DNA of 64,000 bases from Xanthobacteraceae bacterium (GTDB lineage: Bacteria; Pseudomonadota; Alphaproteobacteria; Rhizobiales; Xanthobacteraceae). The translations under genes and the position numbers were made by a program. The first letter of the stretch is position 1. Each line of letters begins with the position of its first letter. Shown piece by piece: positions 40,169-46,872 of the stretch. The stretch covers positions 1-64,000 of the forward strand of contig JARLIY010000132.1 of assembly GCA_031291475.1 (NCBI GenBank), read 5' to 3'. The notes under the pieces were generated by a model. It saw only the letters and a program-made list of their open reading frames with translations, was not told the origin of the DNA and did no database searches.

Positions 40169-42673
40169 TTACGCCGCCGTCAGTTCGACCGCTGCGGCGA
40201 TGGGGAAGATGCATGTCACCGTGGTGCCCTCGCCGACCACGGAGGAAATTTCGACCGTGCCGCCATGCAGCTCGACGAACGAGCGCACCAGCGACAGGCC
40301 GATGCCGGCGCCGCGATGCTGCGAGCCGAGCGAGTGGGTCTCGAACCAGTCAAAAACCCTTTCCAGCATCTCCTGAGGGATGCCCGGGCCGCGGTCGGTG
40401 ACCGCGAACACCAAAGCGTCGGCGCTACGTTCCGCGCGCAACGTCACGGTCCCGCCGGGAGGCGAGAAGCTCACGGCGTTGGCCAGGAGGTTGAAGAGGA
40501 CCTGCCGCACGCGCCGCTCGTCGGCGACGAAGGAGCCGATGTCACGGGCGGCCCGCGTGTCGAGCACCAGGCCGGCGCCGACCAGACGGTCCTGCACGCC
40601 TTCGGCGGCTGCGGCGATGGTTTGCAGGATGTCGACCGGCCCGAGATTGAGCTGCATGCGGCCGGCGTCGATGGTCGCGAGATCGAGGATGTTGTTGATC
40701 AGAGCCAGCAGAGTGTTGGTGGAGACGGTGATGTAATCGAGATATTCGCGCTGCTTTGCCGCCAGCGCCCCGGTGCTCGGGTCGCCGAGCAGGTGAACGA
40801 AACCGATGATGTTAGTGAGCGGCGAGCGCAGCTCGTAGGATACGTGGTGGACGAAATCGATCTTGATCTTGTCGGCGTCCTCCAGCGCTTCGTTGCGCTC
40901 GCGCAGCGCGCGTTCCACATTCACCGAGTCGGTGACGTCGTGGAACGTCACCAGCGTGGCGCCGGCCGGCAGCGGCACGGTCGTGCAATCGATGACGCTG
41001 CCGTCGCGACGCTCAAGCCGCCCGGCAATCGCCTCGCGGCTGTCGATCGCGGTCACCACCTGGCGCAGCGCTTGCCAGGTGGGATCGTCGCCGTGCAGCG
41101 GCTGGCACTGGGCCGATATCGTTTCGATATGCGGACGCTCGGCCAGCATTTGCGGCGACAAATTCCAGATGCGGGCGAAGGCGGAATTGTGCAGCCGGAC
41201 CCGGCCATCGCTGGCGAACACGGCCACGCCTTCGGCGAGGTTGTCGAGCGTTTCGCCCTGGACACGGATTAATTCCTGGAACCGCCGCTCGAGATCGAGC
41301 CGCTCGGTCACGTCGTCGAACAGGTAGGTCACGCCGCCGTCGGGATTGGGCGTAGTGACGACGCGCAAGGTGCGGCCGTCGGGCAGATGCCAAGTGTGTT
41401 CCGCCGCTTCGACGGCGCGGTAAGCCGCATGAAGCTGCATCTTCCATTGCCGGAAGTCCTGCTCCTCCGGCAGCTTGCGCGAAAGGCGCAGCTCCTCCAG
41501 CACGCCTGAATCGGTCGGTTCCCCGTCGAGATAGAACGCATCGAGGTTCCACAGCGCGCGATAGGCGGCGTTGTAGAAGGTCAGCCGCTGATTGGCGTCG
41601 AACATGGCGACGCCGGTCGAGAGCCGATCGAGCGTGCGGCGGTGGGCGTCGACCATGCGGGCGAGCGCGCTGCGCATGGTTTCCGCTTCGGTGGCGTCGA
41701 TGCCGAGCCCGGCGCTGCCGGTTTCGGTCTGGAAGTCGAGCACATCGAAGCTGCGCCGCGCTCCGGCGACGACGGCCGGGAGCCGGCCGGCATAGCCGCC
41801 GCCGGCGATGCGCGCGCGCGCAATGGCGTCGCGCGCCGAACGATCGAGCAGCTCGAGATTGCGCTCGACGGCCTCGGCGGCGTCGCGCGCTTCGACCGCT
41901 CGGGCATAGGCGGCATTGACGAAGGTGAGCCGCCCGGAAGCGTCGCGCGTCCATACCGGCGATGGCAGCCGTTCGATCAAGGCGCGGAACGAAGCGACCT
42001 CGCGCAGCAGCGCCTCGTGCCGGCCGGCGAGATCGAGGAGCTCGCGCTTGACGCCGCTGGCGTCCTTGAGCCGCAGCACGGCGCGGCCGGCGATGGCGCG
42101 GCCCTGCGCCTCGATCGGACGGCCGCCCAGCGTGGTGAATGCCGTCGAGAAGGCTTCGCCGCGCGCGCGCAAAGCCTCGACGGCCTTCTCCATGGCGGTT
42201 GCCTTCGCGGCATCGAGCCAACTGCCGAAGGCGAGCACGCGATGCGGGGCGGCGACACCGACAACTGCGGGATCGCCGTCGATGATCGGTTCGTCGGATG
42301 CCGCCGGCCAGTCCACCATCACTTGCGGCTCGGTCAGCAGCAGCGCATTGGCGCGGTCGAGAGCCGCGCGCAGCGCCGCAATTTCGTCGTGTGCGGAAGC
42401 TTCCAATCGCGCCGAGTGGGCGCGCGCGCGCAAAAGCATGATCGCGGTGACGACGGCGAATACCAAGAGCCCGGCGAGCAAAGCGAGCACCGCGATTTCA
42501 TGGTGGTCGATGCTGCGGGAGGCGCCGAGGACGAATTCGTGCAACGCCAGGCTTGGCGTTTTGGGCGACTCTTCGGCGCGGGCCGAGAGCGGCGCGACAA
42601 CGCCAACGGCTAGGGGGAATCCGCCGAGCCACGGACGAGCATAGCCCCCGCTCCTCCGGATCGTGTCCGGCAT
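40169..42673 (-). CDS. divL: PAS-domain sensor kinase-like protein, DivL homologue
   Basis: PAS repeats; DHp motif DFVHHVSYELRSPLTNI with Tyr at the phospho-acceptor position; N-box NLLANAVSFSP; G-boxes DRGPGI and RGAGIGLSL. Confidence 0.82.
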   Translation of the reverse strand: MPDTIRRSGGYARPWLGGFPLAVGVVAPLSARAEESPKTPSLALHEFVLGASRSIDHHEIAVLALLAGLLVFAVVTAIMLLRARAHSARLEASAHDEIAALRAALDRANALLLTEPQVMVDWPAASDEPIIDGDPAVVGVAAPHRVLAFGSWLDAAKATAMEKAVEALRARGEAFSTAFTTLGGRPIEAQGRAIAGRAVLRLKDASGVKRELLDLAGRHEALLREVASFRALIERLPSPVWTRDASGRLTFVNAAYARAVEARDAAEAVERNLELLDRSARDAIARARIAGGGYAGRLPAVVAGARRSFDVLDFQTETGSAGLGIDATEAETMRSALARMVDAHRRTLDRLSTGVAMFDANQRLTFYNAAYRALWNLDAFYLDGEPTDSGVLEELRLSRKLPEEQDFRQWKMQLHAAYRAVEAAEHTWHLPDGRTLRVVTTPNPDGGVTYLFDDVTERLDLERRFQELIRVQGETLDNLAEGVAVFASDGRVRLHNSAFARIWNLSPQMLAERPHIETISAQCQPLHGDDPTWQALRQVVTAIDSREAIAGRLERRDGSVIDCTTVPLPAGATLVTFHDVTDSVNVERALRERNEALEDADKIKIDFVHHVSYELRSPLTNIIGFVHLLGDPSTGALAAKQREYLDYITVSTNTLLALINNILDLATIDAGRMQLNLGPVDILQTIAAAAEGVQDRLVGAGLVLDTRAARDIGSFVADERRVRQVLFNLLANAVSFSPPGGTVTLRAERSADALVFAVTDRGPGIPQEMLERVFDWFETHSLGSQHRGAGIGLSLVRSFVELHGGTVEISSVVGEGTTVTCIFPIAAAVELTAA

Positions 42674-42866: not shown

Positions 42867-43283
42867 TTATCCCCGTTCAGGCGTTCCGCGCGGCGGGCCA
42901 TGTCTTCGAGGTTGATGCGGCTGAGCGCCGAGCCGAATTCCATCTCGGCCGGGGTCAGCGGAAACCACCACTTTGGCCACCAGCTCGGAGTCCGATCCAT
43001 CTTCCAGCCCATCGACCGTGCCTGCCGCACTTGCTGCACGCAGGATGTCGTTCGCCGTCACCTGCGTCCGCTGCCGCGCCAATTCGTAACCGCCGCGCGG
43101 CCCGCGGATACCATTGAGGATTCCGTCGCGCACAAGCGATTGCAGCACGGTCTCAAGGTGCCGGGGCGGCAAGCCGTGACGCGCCGCCAGAGTCCTGGCG
43201 GAAATCGGCCGCCCTTCCGCTTGCAGTGCCACGTCGATGACAGCTGCAATCGCAAGGAGTCCTTTGCGCGGAAGCAGAGACAT
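42867..43283 (-). CDS. Rrf2 family transcriptional regulator (probable 3' frameshift)
   Basis: MSLLPRKGLLAIAAVIDVALQAEGRPISARTLAARHGLPPRHLETVLQSLVRDGILNGIRGPRGGYELAR; C-terminus diverges from the Rrf2-like continuation in the +1 frame. Confidence 0.85.
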   Translation of the reverse strand: MSLLPRKGLLAIAAVIDVALQAEGRPISARTLAARHGLPPRHLETVLQSLVRDGILNGIRGPRGGYELARQRTQVTANDILRAASAAGTVDGLEDGSDSELVAKVVVSADPGRDGIRLGAQPHQPRRHGPPRGTPERG

Positions 43284-43374
43284 GCAAGCAGAGAAAACGT
43301 CGCACGGGAGAATTGGTTCGCGCTTGGGAGGTAATTGGTTACTCTTCAAGCAGTTCCCGTGACCGACGTCCTAT

Positions 43375-43842
43375 TCAGTCATGCCCCGTCGAACCCATTC
43401 CGCCAGCGGCGCGCGCGGTCGAATCGAGGCTCGCCGCTTCGATAAACTCGATTCGTTGCACCGCCGCGACGATGAGCTGCGCGATGCGCATGCCGCGGCT
43501 TATGGCGAAAGGCTCGGAACCGAGATTGACCAGAATGACCTGCACTTCCCCGCGATAATCCGCATCGATGGTGCCGGGAGAATTGAGCACGGTGACCCCG
43601 TGACGGACGGCCAGACCCGAGCGCGGCCGAATTTGCGCTTCGTGGCCGGGCGGCAGCGCGATCGCGACGCCGGTCGGGATCATCGCGCGCGCCCCCGGCG
43701 CCAGTTCGACCGGCGCGTCGGCCGGCACAGCAGCGAGAAGATCGAGGCCGGCGGCGAGCGCGCTTTGATATTGCGGCAGCGGCAGATCGGCGGCATGCGA
43801 TAGCCGCACGACGCGGACTTCGACTGGTGCGCCACCGCTCAC
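43375..43842 (-). CDS. dut: dUTP diphosphatase
   Basis: [47 protein letters not shown]. Confidence 0.96.
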
Positions 43843-45236
43843 TTTTTCGTATCCGCAAGCGCCGCGGCGATCCGCGCGATCAGTGCGCGCGCGACCTCGT
43901 CCTTCGATTGCGGCGGCCAGGATTCGACACCGTCGGCACTGACCAGGTGAATCGTGTTGCTGTCGCCGCCCATAATGCCGGTCGCGGGCGAAACATCGTT
44001 GGCAAGGATCCAGTCGCAGCCTTTCTTCTTGAGCTTGGCCTCGGCGTTGGCGACGACATGATCGGTTTCCGCGGCGAAGCCGATCACCAGACCTGGCCGG
44101 CCCGATTTGCGGTGCGCGACCGTGGACAGGATATCCGGGTTCTCCACCAATTCGATTGTCGGCGGCGGGCCGTGCTTCTTGATCTTGCGTTGACTCGTCC
44201 GCTGTGGGCGCCAGTCGGCAACGGCGGCGGCAAAGACGGCAGCGTCCACCGGCAGTGCTTTCTCAACCGCCGTCAGCATCTCCTGCGCGGTCTCGACCCG
44301 GACGACGCCCACGCCCGGCGGATCGGGCAAATTCACCGGCCCGCTGACCAGCACGACATCGGCGCCGGCGGCCGCCGCCGCCGCGGCGATGGCGTGACCC
44401 TGCTTGCCGGACGAGCGGTTGGCGAGCATGCGTACCGGGTCGAGCGGCTCATGTGTCGGTCCGGACGTGACCAGCACGCGCCTGCCGGCAAGCACCCCGC
44501 CGCTATGAATGAGCGCCGCCGCGGCGGCGGCGATTTCCAGCGGTTCGGACATACGGCCGGTGCCGGCTTCGCCGCGCTCGGCCATTTCGCCGGCATTCGG
44601 CCCGACGACGTGGACGCCGTCGGCCGCAAGTTGCGCGAGATTGCGTCGCGTCGCCTTCGCCGCCCACATGCGCGGGTTCATCGCCGGCGCGATCAGGATC
44701 GGCCTGTCGGTTGCAAGGAGGACGGCGGCGGCCAGATCGCCGGCATGTCCTCCCACCATTTTGGCGATGAGGTCGGCGGTGGCAGGCGCAACGACGACGA
44801 GGTCGGTGTCGCGCGCCAGCCGGATATGGCCGACATCGAACTCGCTCGCTTGATCGAACAGGTCGGTATAGGCGCGCTCGCCGCACAACGCGCCGGCGGC
44901 GAGCGGCGTCACGAAATTCTGCGCCGCGCCGGTCAGGATGCAACGCACATGCGCGCCGCGGTCCTGCAGGCGGCGGATGAGATCGAGCGATTTATAGGCG
45001 GCAATGCCGCCGCCGATGATGAGGAGAACGCGCGTCGTAGCGGCGGGCAGCGTTTCGCGCTTGGCGCGAGCGGCATCGTCCCGTGCAGCGGCGCCGGCAA
45101 AGCTTTCCTCATCCGCCGCGGCGCTGCGCAGGATGGTGCGCACTTCGTCTTCGACCGAGCGGCCGTTATGGGCAGCGCGCAGCCGCAGGCGCCGCTTGAG
45201 CGTGTCGTCGAGCTGCCGGACGGTGAGACTGGCCAT
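43839..45236 (-). CDS. coaBC: Phosphopantothenoylcysteine decarboxylase/phosphopantothenate-cysteine ligase with N-terminal FitA-like RHH domain
   Basis: CoaB/CoaC motifs ([59 protein letters not shown]) preceded in frame by [39 protein letters not shown]. Confidence 0.95.
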
Positions 45237-45274
45237 CGGCTTCCCCAAGGCAGATCAGCACGTTAGCAGAACTG

Positions 45275-45300
45275 TGATTGCATTGCAATCAATGCAATCA
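45275..45300. promoter_or_regulatory. Candidate operator: perfect inverted repeat TGATTGCATTG-CAAT-CAATGCAATCA upstream of coaBC
   Basis: Half-sites TGATTGCA (45275), TGCAATCA (45284) and TGCAATCA (45293) at exact 9-nt spacing; overlaps ubiB stop; 38 nt 5' of coaBC start. Confidence 0.55.
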
Positions 45301-46872
45301 GCGGATCAGGAGGATGACGATCCATAGCAGCAAGGCGGCGATCACCCACAGCGCGACGATCGACCAGCGGCCGCGGCGGGCTTCGGCCTTGCCGATCTCG
45401 CCGACGGTTTGCGGCGAGAGCACGAGGCCGTCGCGGGTGATTTCGTCGAGCTGATCGAGCACGCGCGCGCCGCGCGTCAAGAGGCCCGGCGCGTTGCCGA
45501 TGAAACGGCCGATTTCGCCGGCGCCCTGCACCGCACCTTCGAGCTTGCCGGCCGGGCCGAGGTGCCGGGTCATCCATTCGCGCACCACCGGTTCCGCGGT
45601 CGACCACATATCGAGCTTGGGATCGAGCGAGCGCGCCACGCCTTCGACCACCACCATGGTCTTTTGCAAGAGCAGCAATTCCGGCCGGGTGCGCATGTCG
45701 AACAGGCCGGTGACCTCGAACAGCAGCGTCAGCAATCGCGCCATCGAAATATCTTCGGCGGCGCGATTATGGATCGGTTCACCGATGGCGCGAATGGCTT
45801 GCGCAAAGCTTTCCACCGAATGGGTGGGCGGCACATAGCCCGCCTCGAAATGCACCTCGGCGGTACGATGGTAATCGCGCGTGATGAAGCCGTGCAGGAT
45901 TTCCGCGAGAAACAAACGCTCTTTGGCGCCGAGCCGGCCCATGATGCCGAAATCGACGGCAATGAGCCGGCCGTCGTCGTCGACGAACAGATTCCCCGGA
46001 TGCATGTCGGCATGAAAGAAGCCGTCGCGCAGCGCGTGGCGCAGGAAGGTCTGGATCAGCGCCCGCGCCAGTTGCGGCAGGTCGAAGCCCTTGGCGATGA
46101 GGCGCGCGCGATCCGACAGCGGCGTGGCGTCGATCCATTCCAGCGTCAGGACTTCCTTGGTGGTGCGGTCCCAGTCCACTGCGGGGACGCGAAAATCCGG
46201 ATCGTCCTTGGTGTTGTCGGCCATTTCCGAGAGCGCAGCCGCTTCCAGGCGGAAATCCATCTCGACGGTGACCGAGCGTCGCAAGGTATCGACCACTTCA
46301 ACGAGGCGGAGCCGGCGCGCCTCCGCGGAAAAATCCTCCGCGTGCCGGGCGACGAAGGTGAAAGCGCGCAAGTCGGCATGGAAACGCCGCTCGATCCCCG
46401 GCCGCAGCACCTTGACGGCGACGGCCTTCGGTCCGCTCGCGGTTTCGACCTCAGCGCGATGCACCTGGGCGATCGAGGCGGCGGCGACCGGCGGGCCGAA
46501 GCTGAGATAGATTGCGCTGACCGGCCTGCCGAACGAGGCGGCGACGGCGGCTTCCGCTTCCTTCTGCGGGAAGGGCGGCATCTGGTCCTGCAAATGCTCG
46601 AGATCGTGGGCAAGCGCCGCGCCAACGACATCGGGGCGCGTCGCCAGAAACTGGCCGAGTTTGACGTAGCTCGGGCCGAGCCGCGTGAGCGCGACCGACA
46701 GACGCGTTTCGGCGGCGCCGCTCGACGGACGCTCGATCAGCCGCGCGACGCGGATCAGAGGACGCGCCGCCGGCGGTATGATCGCCGGATCGATGACGCC
46801 AAAAACGCCTTCGCGGGCGAAAACCCAGCCGGCGCGGCCGAGCCGCAGAAGATACGCGGGAGCGGAGATCAC
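45298..46872 (-). CDS. ubiB: Ubiquinone biosynthesis atypical kinase UbiB
   Basis: [60 protein letters not shown]. Confidence 0.96.

What the first reader, a model, noticed from the sequence alone, without database searches (positions are those of the whole stretch)
45102..45236. Ribbon-helix-helix antitoxin-like domain fused in frame to CoaBC
Seen: the coaBC ORF starts with [39 protein letters not shown], an alanine-rich linker follows, and then the canonical CoaC start ([22 protein letters not shown]). There is no stop and no intervening Met. Established: this N-terminus has the pattern of FitA/VapB-type RHH antitoxins (MASxxIRNLxxxxxxxLxxRAxxxGRSxExExRxIL). Inference: a core CoA-biosynthesis enzyme may carry a DNA-binding/dimerisation module with no partner toxin nearby, acting as a metabolic sensor or autoregulator, or simply as an oligomerisation domain.
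Basis: partly seen in the sequence, partly recalled or inferred. Interest (0 to 1): 0.75.

Follow-up and report, generated by a model that had tools for sequence, protein, structure and literature searches.

The report
CoA enzyme carrying an antitoxin repressor domain
In many rhizobia-like bacteria the essential coenzyme-A enzyme CoaBC carries a DNA-binding domain of toxin-antitoxin type and has that domain's binding site in front of its own gene, so the enzyme very probably switches its own gene down.

Summary
CoaBC here (43839-45236, minus strand) begins with a FitA-type ribbon-helix-helix (RHH) domain: Pfam PF22513, E 1e-16, best structural match FitA of FitAB. It is no assembly or start-site artefact. 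The fusion recurs in Xanthobacteraceae and Rhizobiaceae-type Hyphomicrobiales (Pseudolabrys, Rhodoplanes, Brucella, Bartonella, Mesorhizobium, Phyllobacterium). The RHH is under purifying selection as strong as the enzyme core (dN/dS 0.125 vs 0.126; linker 0.44), and the window has no start codon in the linker.

Between ubiB and coaBC lies TGATTGCA-T-TGATTGCA-A-TGCAATCA (45275-45300). This array stands before 79 of 84 fused coaBC genes and 0 of 69 coaBC genes without RHH. Its palindrome occurs once per genome, only there. True FitAB toxin-antitoxin operators in related genomes show the same 9-bp octamer grammar. Some relatives still have an intact FitAB module, or fitA with a gutted fitB, between ubiB and coaBC.

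Best explanation: an antitoxin-derived RHH makes CoaBC an autogenous repressor of coaBC(-dut), functionally analogous to PutA. DNA binding and metabolite control are inferred, not shown. I found no report of it in the open-access papers searched.

The parts
43839..45236 (-). coaBC CDS with N-terminal RHH fusion, 465 aa plus stop
45117..45233 (-). FitA-like RHH domain, residues 2-40 (PF22513); T5 and R7 invariant in 60 fused homologues
45036..45116 (-). Low-complexity linker, residues 41-67; predicted disordered (pLDDT <50 for residues 45-65), fast-evolving (dN/dS 0.44), no start codon in the window
44529..45035 (-). CoaC (PPC decarboxylase, FMN flavoprotein) domain, PF02441
43944..44492 (-). 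CoaB (phosphopantothenate-cysteine ligase) domain, PF04127
45275..45300 (-). Predicted operator TGATTGCA-T-TGATTGCA-A-TGCAATCA: three octamers in 9-bp steps; the last two form a perfect 17-bp dyad; its first three bases are the ubiB stop codon
45287..45292 (-). -35-like TTGATT inside the operator (inferred)
   Evidence: positional conservation only; the consensus promoter scan found nothing in the window
45263..45268 (-). -10-like TGCTAA, 18 nt after TTGATT (inferred); relatives have TATAAT, TAGGAT or TATGAT at 17 nt
45241..45246 (-). GGGGAA, probable ribosome-binding site before the RHH start codon
   Evidence: sequence only
43375..43842 (-). dut (dUTPase), start codon overlapping the end of coaBC; likely co-transcribed
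   Evidence: identification from sequence, not profile-tested
45298..46872 (-). ubiB-like gene upstream
   Evidence: identification from sequence, not profile-tested

Best explanation
The N-terminus of this CoaBC is a working DNA-binding domain derived from a FitA-type antitoxin. RHH domains of two CoaBC chains pair, and two or three such dimers bind the TGNNNNCA octamers, set 9 bp apart, that overlap the promoter between ubiB and coaBC. That lowers transcription of coaBC and, by overlap, dut. CoaBC is therefore a bifunctional CoA-synthesis flavoenzyme that is also its own repressor, a functional counterpart of trifunctional PutA. The domain was most likely recruited when a FitAB toxin-antitoxin module next to coaBC lost its toxin and its antitoxin's DNA-binding part became fused to CoaBC, keeping the operator. 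Shown: fusion, domain identity, selection, operator conservation and its tie to the RHH, single genomic target, and intermediate loci. Inferred: actual DNA binding, repression rather than activation, stoichiometry, and the order of evolutionary events.
For: RHH by profile, sequence match to FitA and fold (best hits are FitA chains of 2bsq, TM 0.77). The fusion recurs in a 101-genome relatives survey and in named genomes. RHH dN/dS 0.125, equal to the core at 0.126, linker 0.44. DNA-reading strand residues T5 and R7 invariant in 60 homologues. Operator array beats all 200 shuffles in 79 of 84 fused loci and in 0 of 69 RHH-less coaBC. TGNNNNCA pairs at exactly 9 bp: 77 of 84 fused, 1 of 69 without RHH, shuffles about 0.1; other spacings 0-1 of 84 at 7-12 bp and 9 of 84 at 13 bp. 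Exact 17-bp dyad once per genome in 25 of 101 relatives, 0 in reversed-pattern controls; every instance lies just upstream of the RHH-coaBC or split-RHH coordinates. Independent-pair test on a CoaBC tree: about 4.8 concordant, 0-0.1 discordant. Genuine FitAB loci have the same 9-bp octamer grammar in 6 of 14. Intact fitAB between ubiB and coaBC in L186, L187 and L203 (L203 with TGATTGCATTGCAATCA); fitA plus internally deleted fitB in L169 and L176.
Against: No binding or expression data. The phylogenetically corrected association is borderline (median p 0.06, because few independent switches exist). Five of 84 fused loci lack a shuffle-beating array. The -35/-10 assignment is weak in the window. 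Split relatives nested among fused ones (G013, and perhaps G006) mean the evolutionary order could also run from fusion to replacement. Monomer modelling cannot show the RHH dimer, so its strand is not formed in the models.
Confidence: 0.85

Rival explanations
1. The RHH is only an extra dimerisation or oligomerisation module that stabilises the CoaBC assembly, without DNA binding.
For: RHH domains are obligate dimers. Fusing EcPutA's RHH to monomeric RcPutA makes it dimeric (PMC5293562). CoaBC is an oligomer (dodecamer in mycobacteria, PMC7794376).
Against: It does not predict the operator that accompanies the RHH or the invariant DNA-contact positions T5 and R7. CoaBC is conserved without an RHH in most relatives outside the fused groups.
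Confidence: 0.06
2. The operator is bound by another, free FitA-type or unrelated regulator; the RHH on CoaBC is a passive relic.
For: The genome holds another FitAB module (G000 C92).
Against: That module has its own TGATATCA-type operator. The coaBC operator's presence follows the RHH at this locus, and it is the only exact dyad in the genome. A relic would not keep dN/dS 0.125.
Confidence: 0.05
3. Translation really starts inside the linker or CoaC, so the RHH is untranslated or a separate peptide.
For: A B. ovis flavoproteome paper lists CoaBC with PF02441 at residues 7-180, i.e. a deposited start downstream of the RHH (PMC9045290).
Against: No ATG, GTG or TTG codon between residue 33 and CoaC in the window, nor in the linker of 32 of 84 homologues including Brucella haematophila L064. 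The RHH and frame are conserved with ATG in 76 of 85 under purifying selection.
Confidence: 0.03
4. The RHH is still a functional antitoxin for a FitB toxin encoded elsewhere, tying toxin neutralisation to CoA synthesis.
For: Related genomes, and this one at C92, hold FitAB modules.
Against: The C-terminal toxin-binding tail of FitA is absent, replaced by a variable linker. C92 fitB has its own fitA.
Confidence: 0.02

Closest known systems
Trifunctional PutA (E. coli, Salmonella): RHH + proline dehydrogenase + P5C dehydrogenase
   Same: N-terminal RHH fused to a bifunctional flavoenzyme, with an operator in front of its own gene; PutA is a proven autogenous repressor (PMC5293562)
   Different: Unrelated enzyme and pathway (biosynthetic, essential CoaBC instead of proline catabolism). 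RHH is of FitA type, not PutA type. Signal and membrane switching are not known here. DNA binding not yet shown.
FitA antitoxin of FitAB (Neisseria; PDB 2H1O, 2BSQ)
   Same: RHH family PF22513, same fold, conserved strand arginine, autoregulatory DNA site upstream of its own gene
   Different: No PIN toxin partner, no toxin-binding C-terminal tail, fused to an enzyme
Ordinary bacterial CoaBC (e.g. M. smegmatis 6TGV)
   Same: CoaC and CoaB domains complete (TIGR00521)
   Different: Ordinary CoaBC begins directly at CoaC; no DNA-binding domain, no operator array

Membership tests
CoaBC (TIGR00521) | CoaC flavoprotein plus CoaB ligase domains above the curated cut-off | tested here: met
   395 bits against cut-off 219.7; PF02441 and PF04127
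FitA-like RHH domain (PF22513) | profile match above gathering score | tested here: met
   61 bits against 27
FitA-like RHH domain (PF22513) | RHH fold resembling FitA | tested here: met
   top three Foldseek hits are 2bsq FitA chains, TM-score (query) 0.77, probability 1.00, although E is only 0.1 for so short a domain
FitAB toxin-antitoxin system | PIN-domain FitB gene adjacent to the antitoxin | tested here: not met
   neighbours are ubiB and dut; FitB present only in split relatives
FitAB toxin-antitoxin system | C-terminal toxin-binding tail on the antitoxin | tested here: not met
   tail of type PxGGxxLE...P..F seen in L169, L187 and L203; variable linker in the fused proteins
FitAB toxin-antitoxin system | autoregulatory operator with repeated octamers upstream | tested here: met
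   (sequence level only)
RHH-enzyme autogenous repressors (PutA kind) | RHH in the same chain as the enzyme | tested here: met
RHH-enzyme autogenous repressors (PutA kind) | conserved operator in its own promoter region | tested here: met
RHH-enzyme autogenous repressors (PutA kind) | specific DNA binding and repression by the enzyme | not testable with these tools
   needs EMSA and reporter assays
RHH-enzyme autogenous repressors (PutA kind) | ligand or redox switch between DNA-bound and enzyme state | not testable with these tools
   needs biochemistry with CoA, acyl-CoA, FMN state, pantothenate intermediates

The most novel reading that the evidence does not exclude
CoaBC of these bacteria is a metabolite-gated repressor: its oligomeric state or its occupancy by CoA/acyl-CoA, 4'-phosphopantothenate or FMN redox state changes how the RHH dimers bind the three-octamer operator, so the CoA pathway reads its own product and sets coaBC-dut transcription, using a DNA-binding part domesticated from a toxin-antitoxin module.
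Probability: 0.4. Interest if true: 0.85.

Novelty: new variant of a known kind. Interest (0 to 1): 0.72.

Why it matters
To my knowledge, transcriptional control of bacterial CoA synthesis is poorly known outside a few systems. Here an essential enzyme of the pathway appears to be its own repressor in many genomes, including genera that matter for plants (Mesorhizobium) and animals (Brucella, Bartonella). It would be a second clear instance, besides PutA, of an RHH joined to a flavoenzyme. It is also an unusually legible case of toxin-antitoxin domestication: intact module, gutted toxin and fusion can all be seen at the same chromosomal site, with operator sequences kept. It makes direct tests easy: one predicted operator, one predicted target.

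Tried and rejected
Assembly, frameshift or start-site artefact: rejected, because the fusion recurs in dozens of independent genomes under purifying selection and the window has no linker start codon. Regulon beyond coaBC: the own-genome search with up to 3 mismatches gave one exact site (at coaBC) and otherwise only 3-mismatch sites; in 100 relatives the exact dyad was found only at coaBC. Consensus sigma-70 promoter in the window: the scan found none; the -35/-10 assignment rests on positional conservation only. Literature: no paper with CoaBC plus ribbon-helix-helix, or phosphopantothenoylcysteine plus antitoxin plus fusion; the two papers with coaBC plus toxin-antitoxin mention CoaBC once each and were not opened; Makarova 2009 has no mention of CoaBC or pantothenate; a B. 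ovis flavoproteome paper annotates CoaBC without the RHH. The published sequence of the Neisseria fitAB operator was not found in the open papers, so its likeness is argued only from FitAB loci in related genomes. Order of evolution: identities between split RHH, fused RHH and true FitA are too close (19-27 of 42) to settle ancestry.

Full report
OBSERVATION. The coaBC gene runs on the minus strand from ATG 45236 to the stop codon at 43839-43841. Its first 40 residues score 61 bits to Pfam FitA-like_RHH (cut-off 27). CoaC and CoaB domains follow and are complete (TIGR00521 395 bits). The PDB search with residues 1-50 returns FitA (2h1o, 2bsq; E 0.012-0.017). A model of residues 1-49 (mean pLDDT 83) is closest to the FitA chains in the FitAB-DNA structure (TM 0.77), then other RHH antitoxins and repressors such as VapB12, CopA(SO), AmrZ, Arc and CopG, with PutA's RHH lower in the list. 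In the full-length model the RHH helices (11-24, 28-50) are confident, the linker 45-65 is below pLDDT 50, and the rest matches M. smegmatis CoaBC 6TGV. The monomer models do not form the RHH strand, as expected for a domain that folds as a dimer.

NOT AN ARTEFACT. In a survey of 101 genomes the same full-length fusion is seen in most of the genus and family. Scanning GTDB contigs finds it in named organisms: Pseudolabrys, Rhodoplanes piscinae, Phyllobacterium, Mesorhizobium, Brucella haematophila, Bartonella apis and B. queenslandensis, and Zhengella. In 143 genomes of the class, no listed match outside the order starts at residue 1; one, G502, starts at 26 and was not examined. Methylobacterium, Microvirga, Hyphomicrobium, Xanthobacter, Azorhizobium and Ensifer adhaerens have coaBC without the RHH. 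Pooled over 17 close pairs, dN/dS is 0.125 for the RHH, 0.126 for the core and 0.44 for the linker. T5, R7, L17, R18, A22, S27, E29 and R33 are invariant in 60 fused proteins; T5 and R7 sit in the strand that in RHH proteins reads the DNA (established knowledge of the fold). In the window there is no possible start codon between residue 33 and CoaC.

THE OPERATOR. Between the ubiB stop and the coaBC ATG lies TGATTGCAtTGATTGCAaTGCAATCA (45275-45300; expected by chance in the window with up to 3 mismatches: 0.00). It consists of three octamers at 9-bp steps; the last two form a perfect dyad. Upstream of 84 non-redundant fused genes the best match to this array exceeds all 200 shuffles in 79; upstream of 69 RHH-less coaBC it does so in none. 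Counting only TGNNNNCA pairs, the 9-bp step occurs in 77 of 84 fused loci. Steps of 7, 8, 10, 11 and 12 bp occur in 0-1, a 13-bp step in 9, and shuffles give about 0.1. RHH-less coaBC have it in 1 of 69. In 34 aligned promoters the octamer columns carry 1.5-2.3 bits while most flanking columns carry 0.0-0.4. A second conserved patch (T..TA) lies 17-18 nt after TTGATT of the middle octamer. Some members have TATAAT, TAGGAT or TATGAT there, so the array probably covers the -35 region and spacer of the coaBC promoter (inference; the window's own -10 is weak and the consensus scan found none). The exact 17-bp dyad occurs in 25 of 101 relatives, once in each. Every instance lies within about 110 bp upstream of the fused RHH-coaBC coordinates, or of the split RHH in G013, with zero hits of the reversed-pattern control. 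The target is therefore single. On a tree of 160 CoaBC cores, fusion status needs at least 6 changes on starred branches. Over independent pairs, the operator goes with the RHH in 4.7-4.9 of 6-7 pairs and against it in 0-0.1 (median sign-test p 0.0625).

THE OPERATOR IS OF ANTITOXIN TYPE. Fourteen stand-alone FitA-like loci from related genomes, most with a PIN toxin ORF downstream, were read. Six of 14 have TGNNNNCA pairs at exactly 9 bp directly upstream of fitA (shuffles 0.00), for example TGATATCA-T-TGATCTCA-A-TGATATCA (L215) and TGATATCA-T-TGCCATCA (L219). The coaBC operator is thus written in the grammar of the FitA family.

INTERMEDIATES AT THE SAME SITE. Three genomes have an intact fitA-fitB pair between ubiB and coaBC (L186, L187, L203). 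The L203 and L187 toxins score as PIN domains at E 6e-16 and 1e-16. L203 has TGATTGCATTGCAATCA in front of fitA. Two genomes keep a full-length fitA followed by a gutted fitB of which only the two ends remain (L176: MIVLDTNVVSELMNPAS...VEIIDPW; L169 from the window's own genus, with the complete three-octamer operator). G006 keeps no RHH but has a single TGCAATCA and a stretch matching the 3' end of that fitB fossil in the coaBC leader. L204 has a decayed RHH ORF there. Two Rhizobiaceae-type genomes carry other VapBC modules at this place (L196, L197). The simplest history is: toxin-antitoxin module next to coaBC, loss of toxin, fusion of the antitoxin's RHH to CoaBC, operator kept. Because the split G013 sits among fused relatives, replacement of the fused RHH by a new module is also possible, and 42-residue RHH identities cannot decide.

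HOW IT LIKELY WORKS. RHH domains pair and lay antiparallel strands in the major groove. With three octamers at 9-bp steps, two or three dimers could line up over the promoter, blocking RNA polymerase. CoaBC from mycobacteria is a dodecamer with CoaC trimers at the vertices and CoaB dimers at the edges, and its CoaB activity is inhibited by CoA and acyl-CoA at IC50 38-148 uM (PMC7794376). A multivalent DNA-binding particle whose enzyme part senses CoA thioesters is therefore conceivable but unproven. The closest functional analogue is PutA, whose N-terminal RHH makes a bifunctional flavoenzyme an autogenous repressor; grafting such an RHH to a PutA without one transfers DNA binding and dimerisation while leaving catalysis intact (PMC5293562). 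As in PutA, the flexible linker would let the RHH dimer reach DNA.

NOVELTY. No paper in the held open-access library joins CoaBC with ribbon-helix-helix, or phosphopantothenoylcysteine with antitoxin and fusion; two papers mention coaBC and toxin-antitoxin in the same text, each with CoaBC named once, and were not opened. A Brucella ovis flavoproteome lists CoaBC from a start downstream of the RHH. Subscription journals were not searchable, so an unseen report is possible. The kind (enzyme with RHH as autoregulator) is known; the enzyme, pathway, antitoxin origin and phylogenetic breadth appear new.

Noticed in passing
L169 (G013 C69:3700-6300), L170 (G006 C144): In the window's own genus two genomes have coaBC without RHH. 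G013 has a full fitA plus a gutted fitB between ubiB and coaBC; G006 has only a single octamer and a fitB 3'-end scar. Repeated exchange between toxin-antitoxin module and fusion at one site is unexplained.
   Followed up: partly
L196 (G126), L197 (G377): Different RHH-PIN (VapBC-type) modules sit directly upstream of coaBC in Rhizobiaceae-type genomes, suggesting the ubiB-coaBC gap is a repeated landing site for toxin-antitoxin modules.
   Followed up: partly
L060, L064, L078, L089, L093, L108, L109: In Rhizobiaceae-type fused genes an additional TGCAATCA (or CGCAATCA) octamer lies immediately before the start codon, between the ribosome-binding site and ATG; it could allow control of translation or of transcript elongation.
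   Followed up: no
L133, L148, L150, L152, L155, L156, L158: The g24 genomes have two separate dyads, TGATTGCANTGCAATCA and TGATAGCATCGCTATCA, instead of three octamers in a row: a variant operator layout.
   Followed up: no
PMC9045290, BOV_RS15430: The deposited Brucella ovis CoaBC starts downstream of the RHH; gene calls in this group may often clip the domain.
   Followed up: partly
L204 (G304), in the leader just before coaBC: A short ORF MDDLIIEIRDELSAALERIAAREGCDAGETADG looks like a decaying RHH antitoxin remnant.
   Followed up: no
window 42867-43349 (-): An ORF resembling an Rrf2-type regulator lies just downstream of dut, followed by a PAS-histidine-kinase-like gene (40169-42673); not examined.
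   Followed up: no
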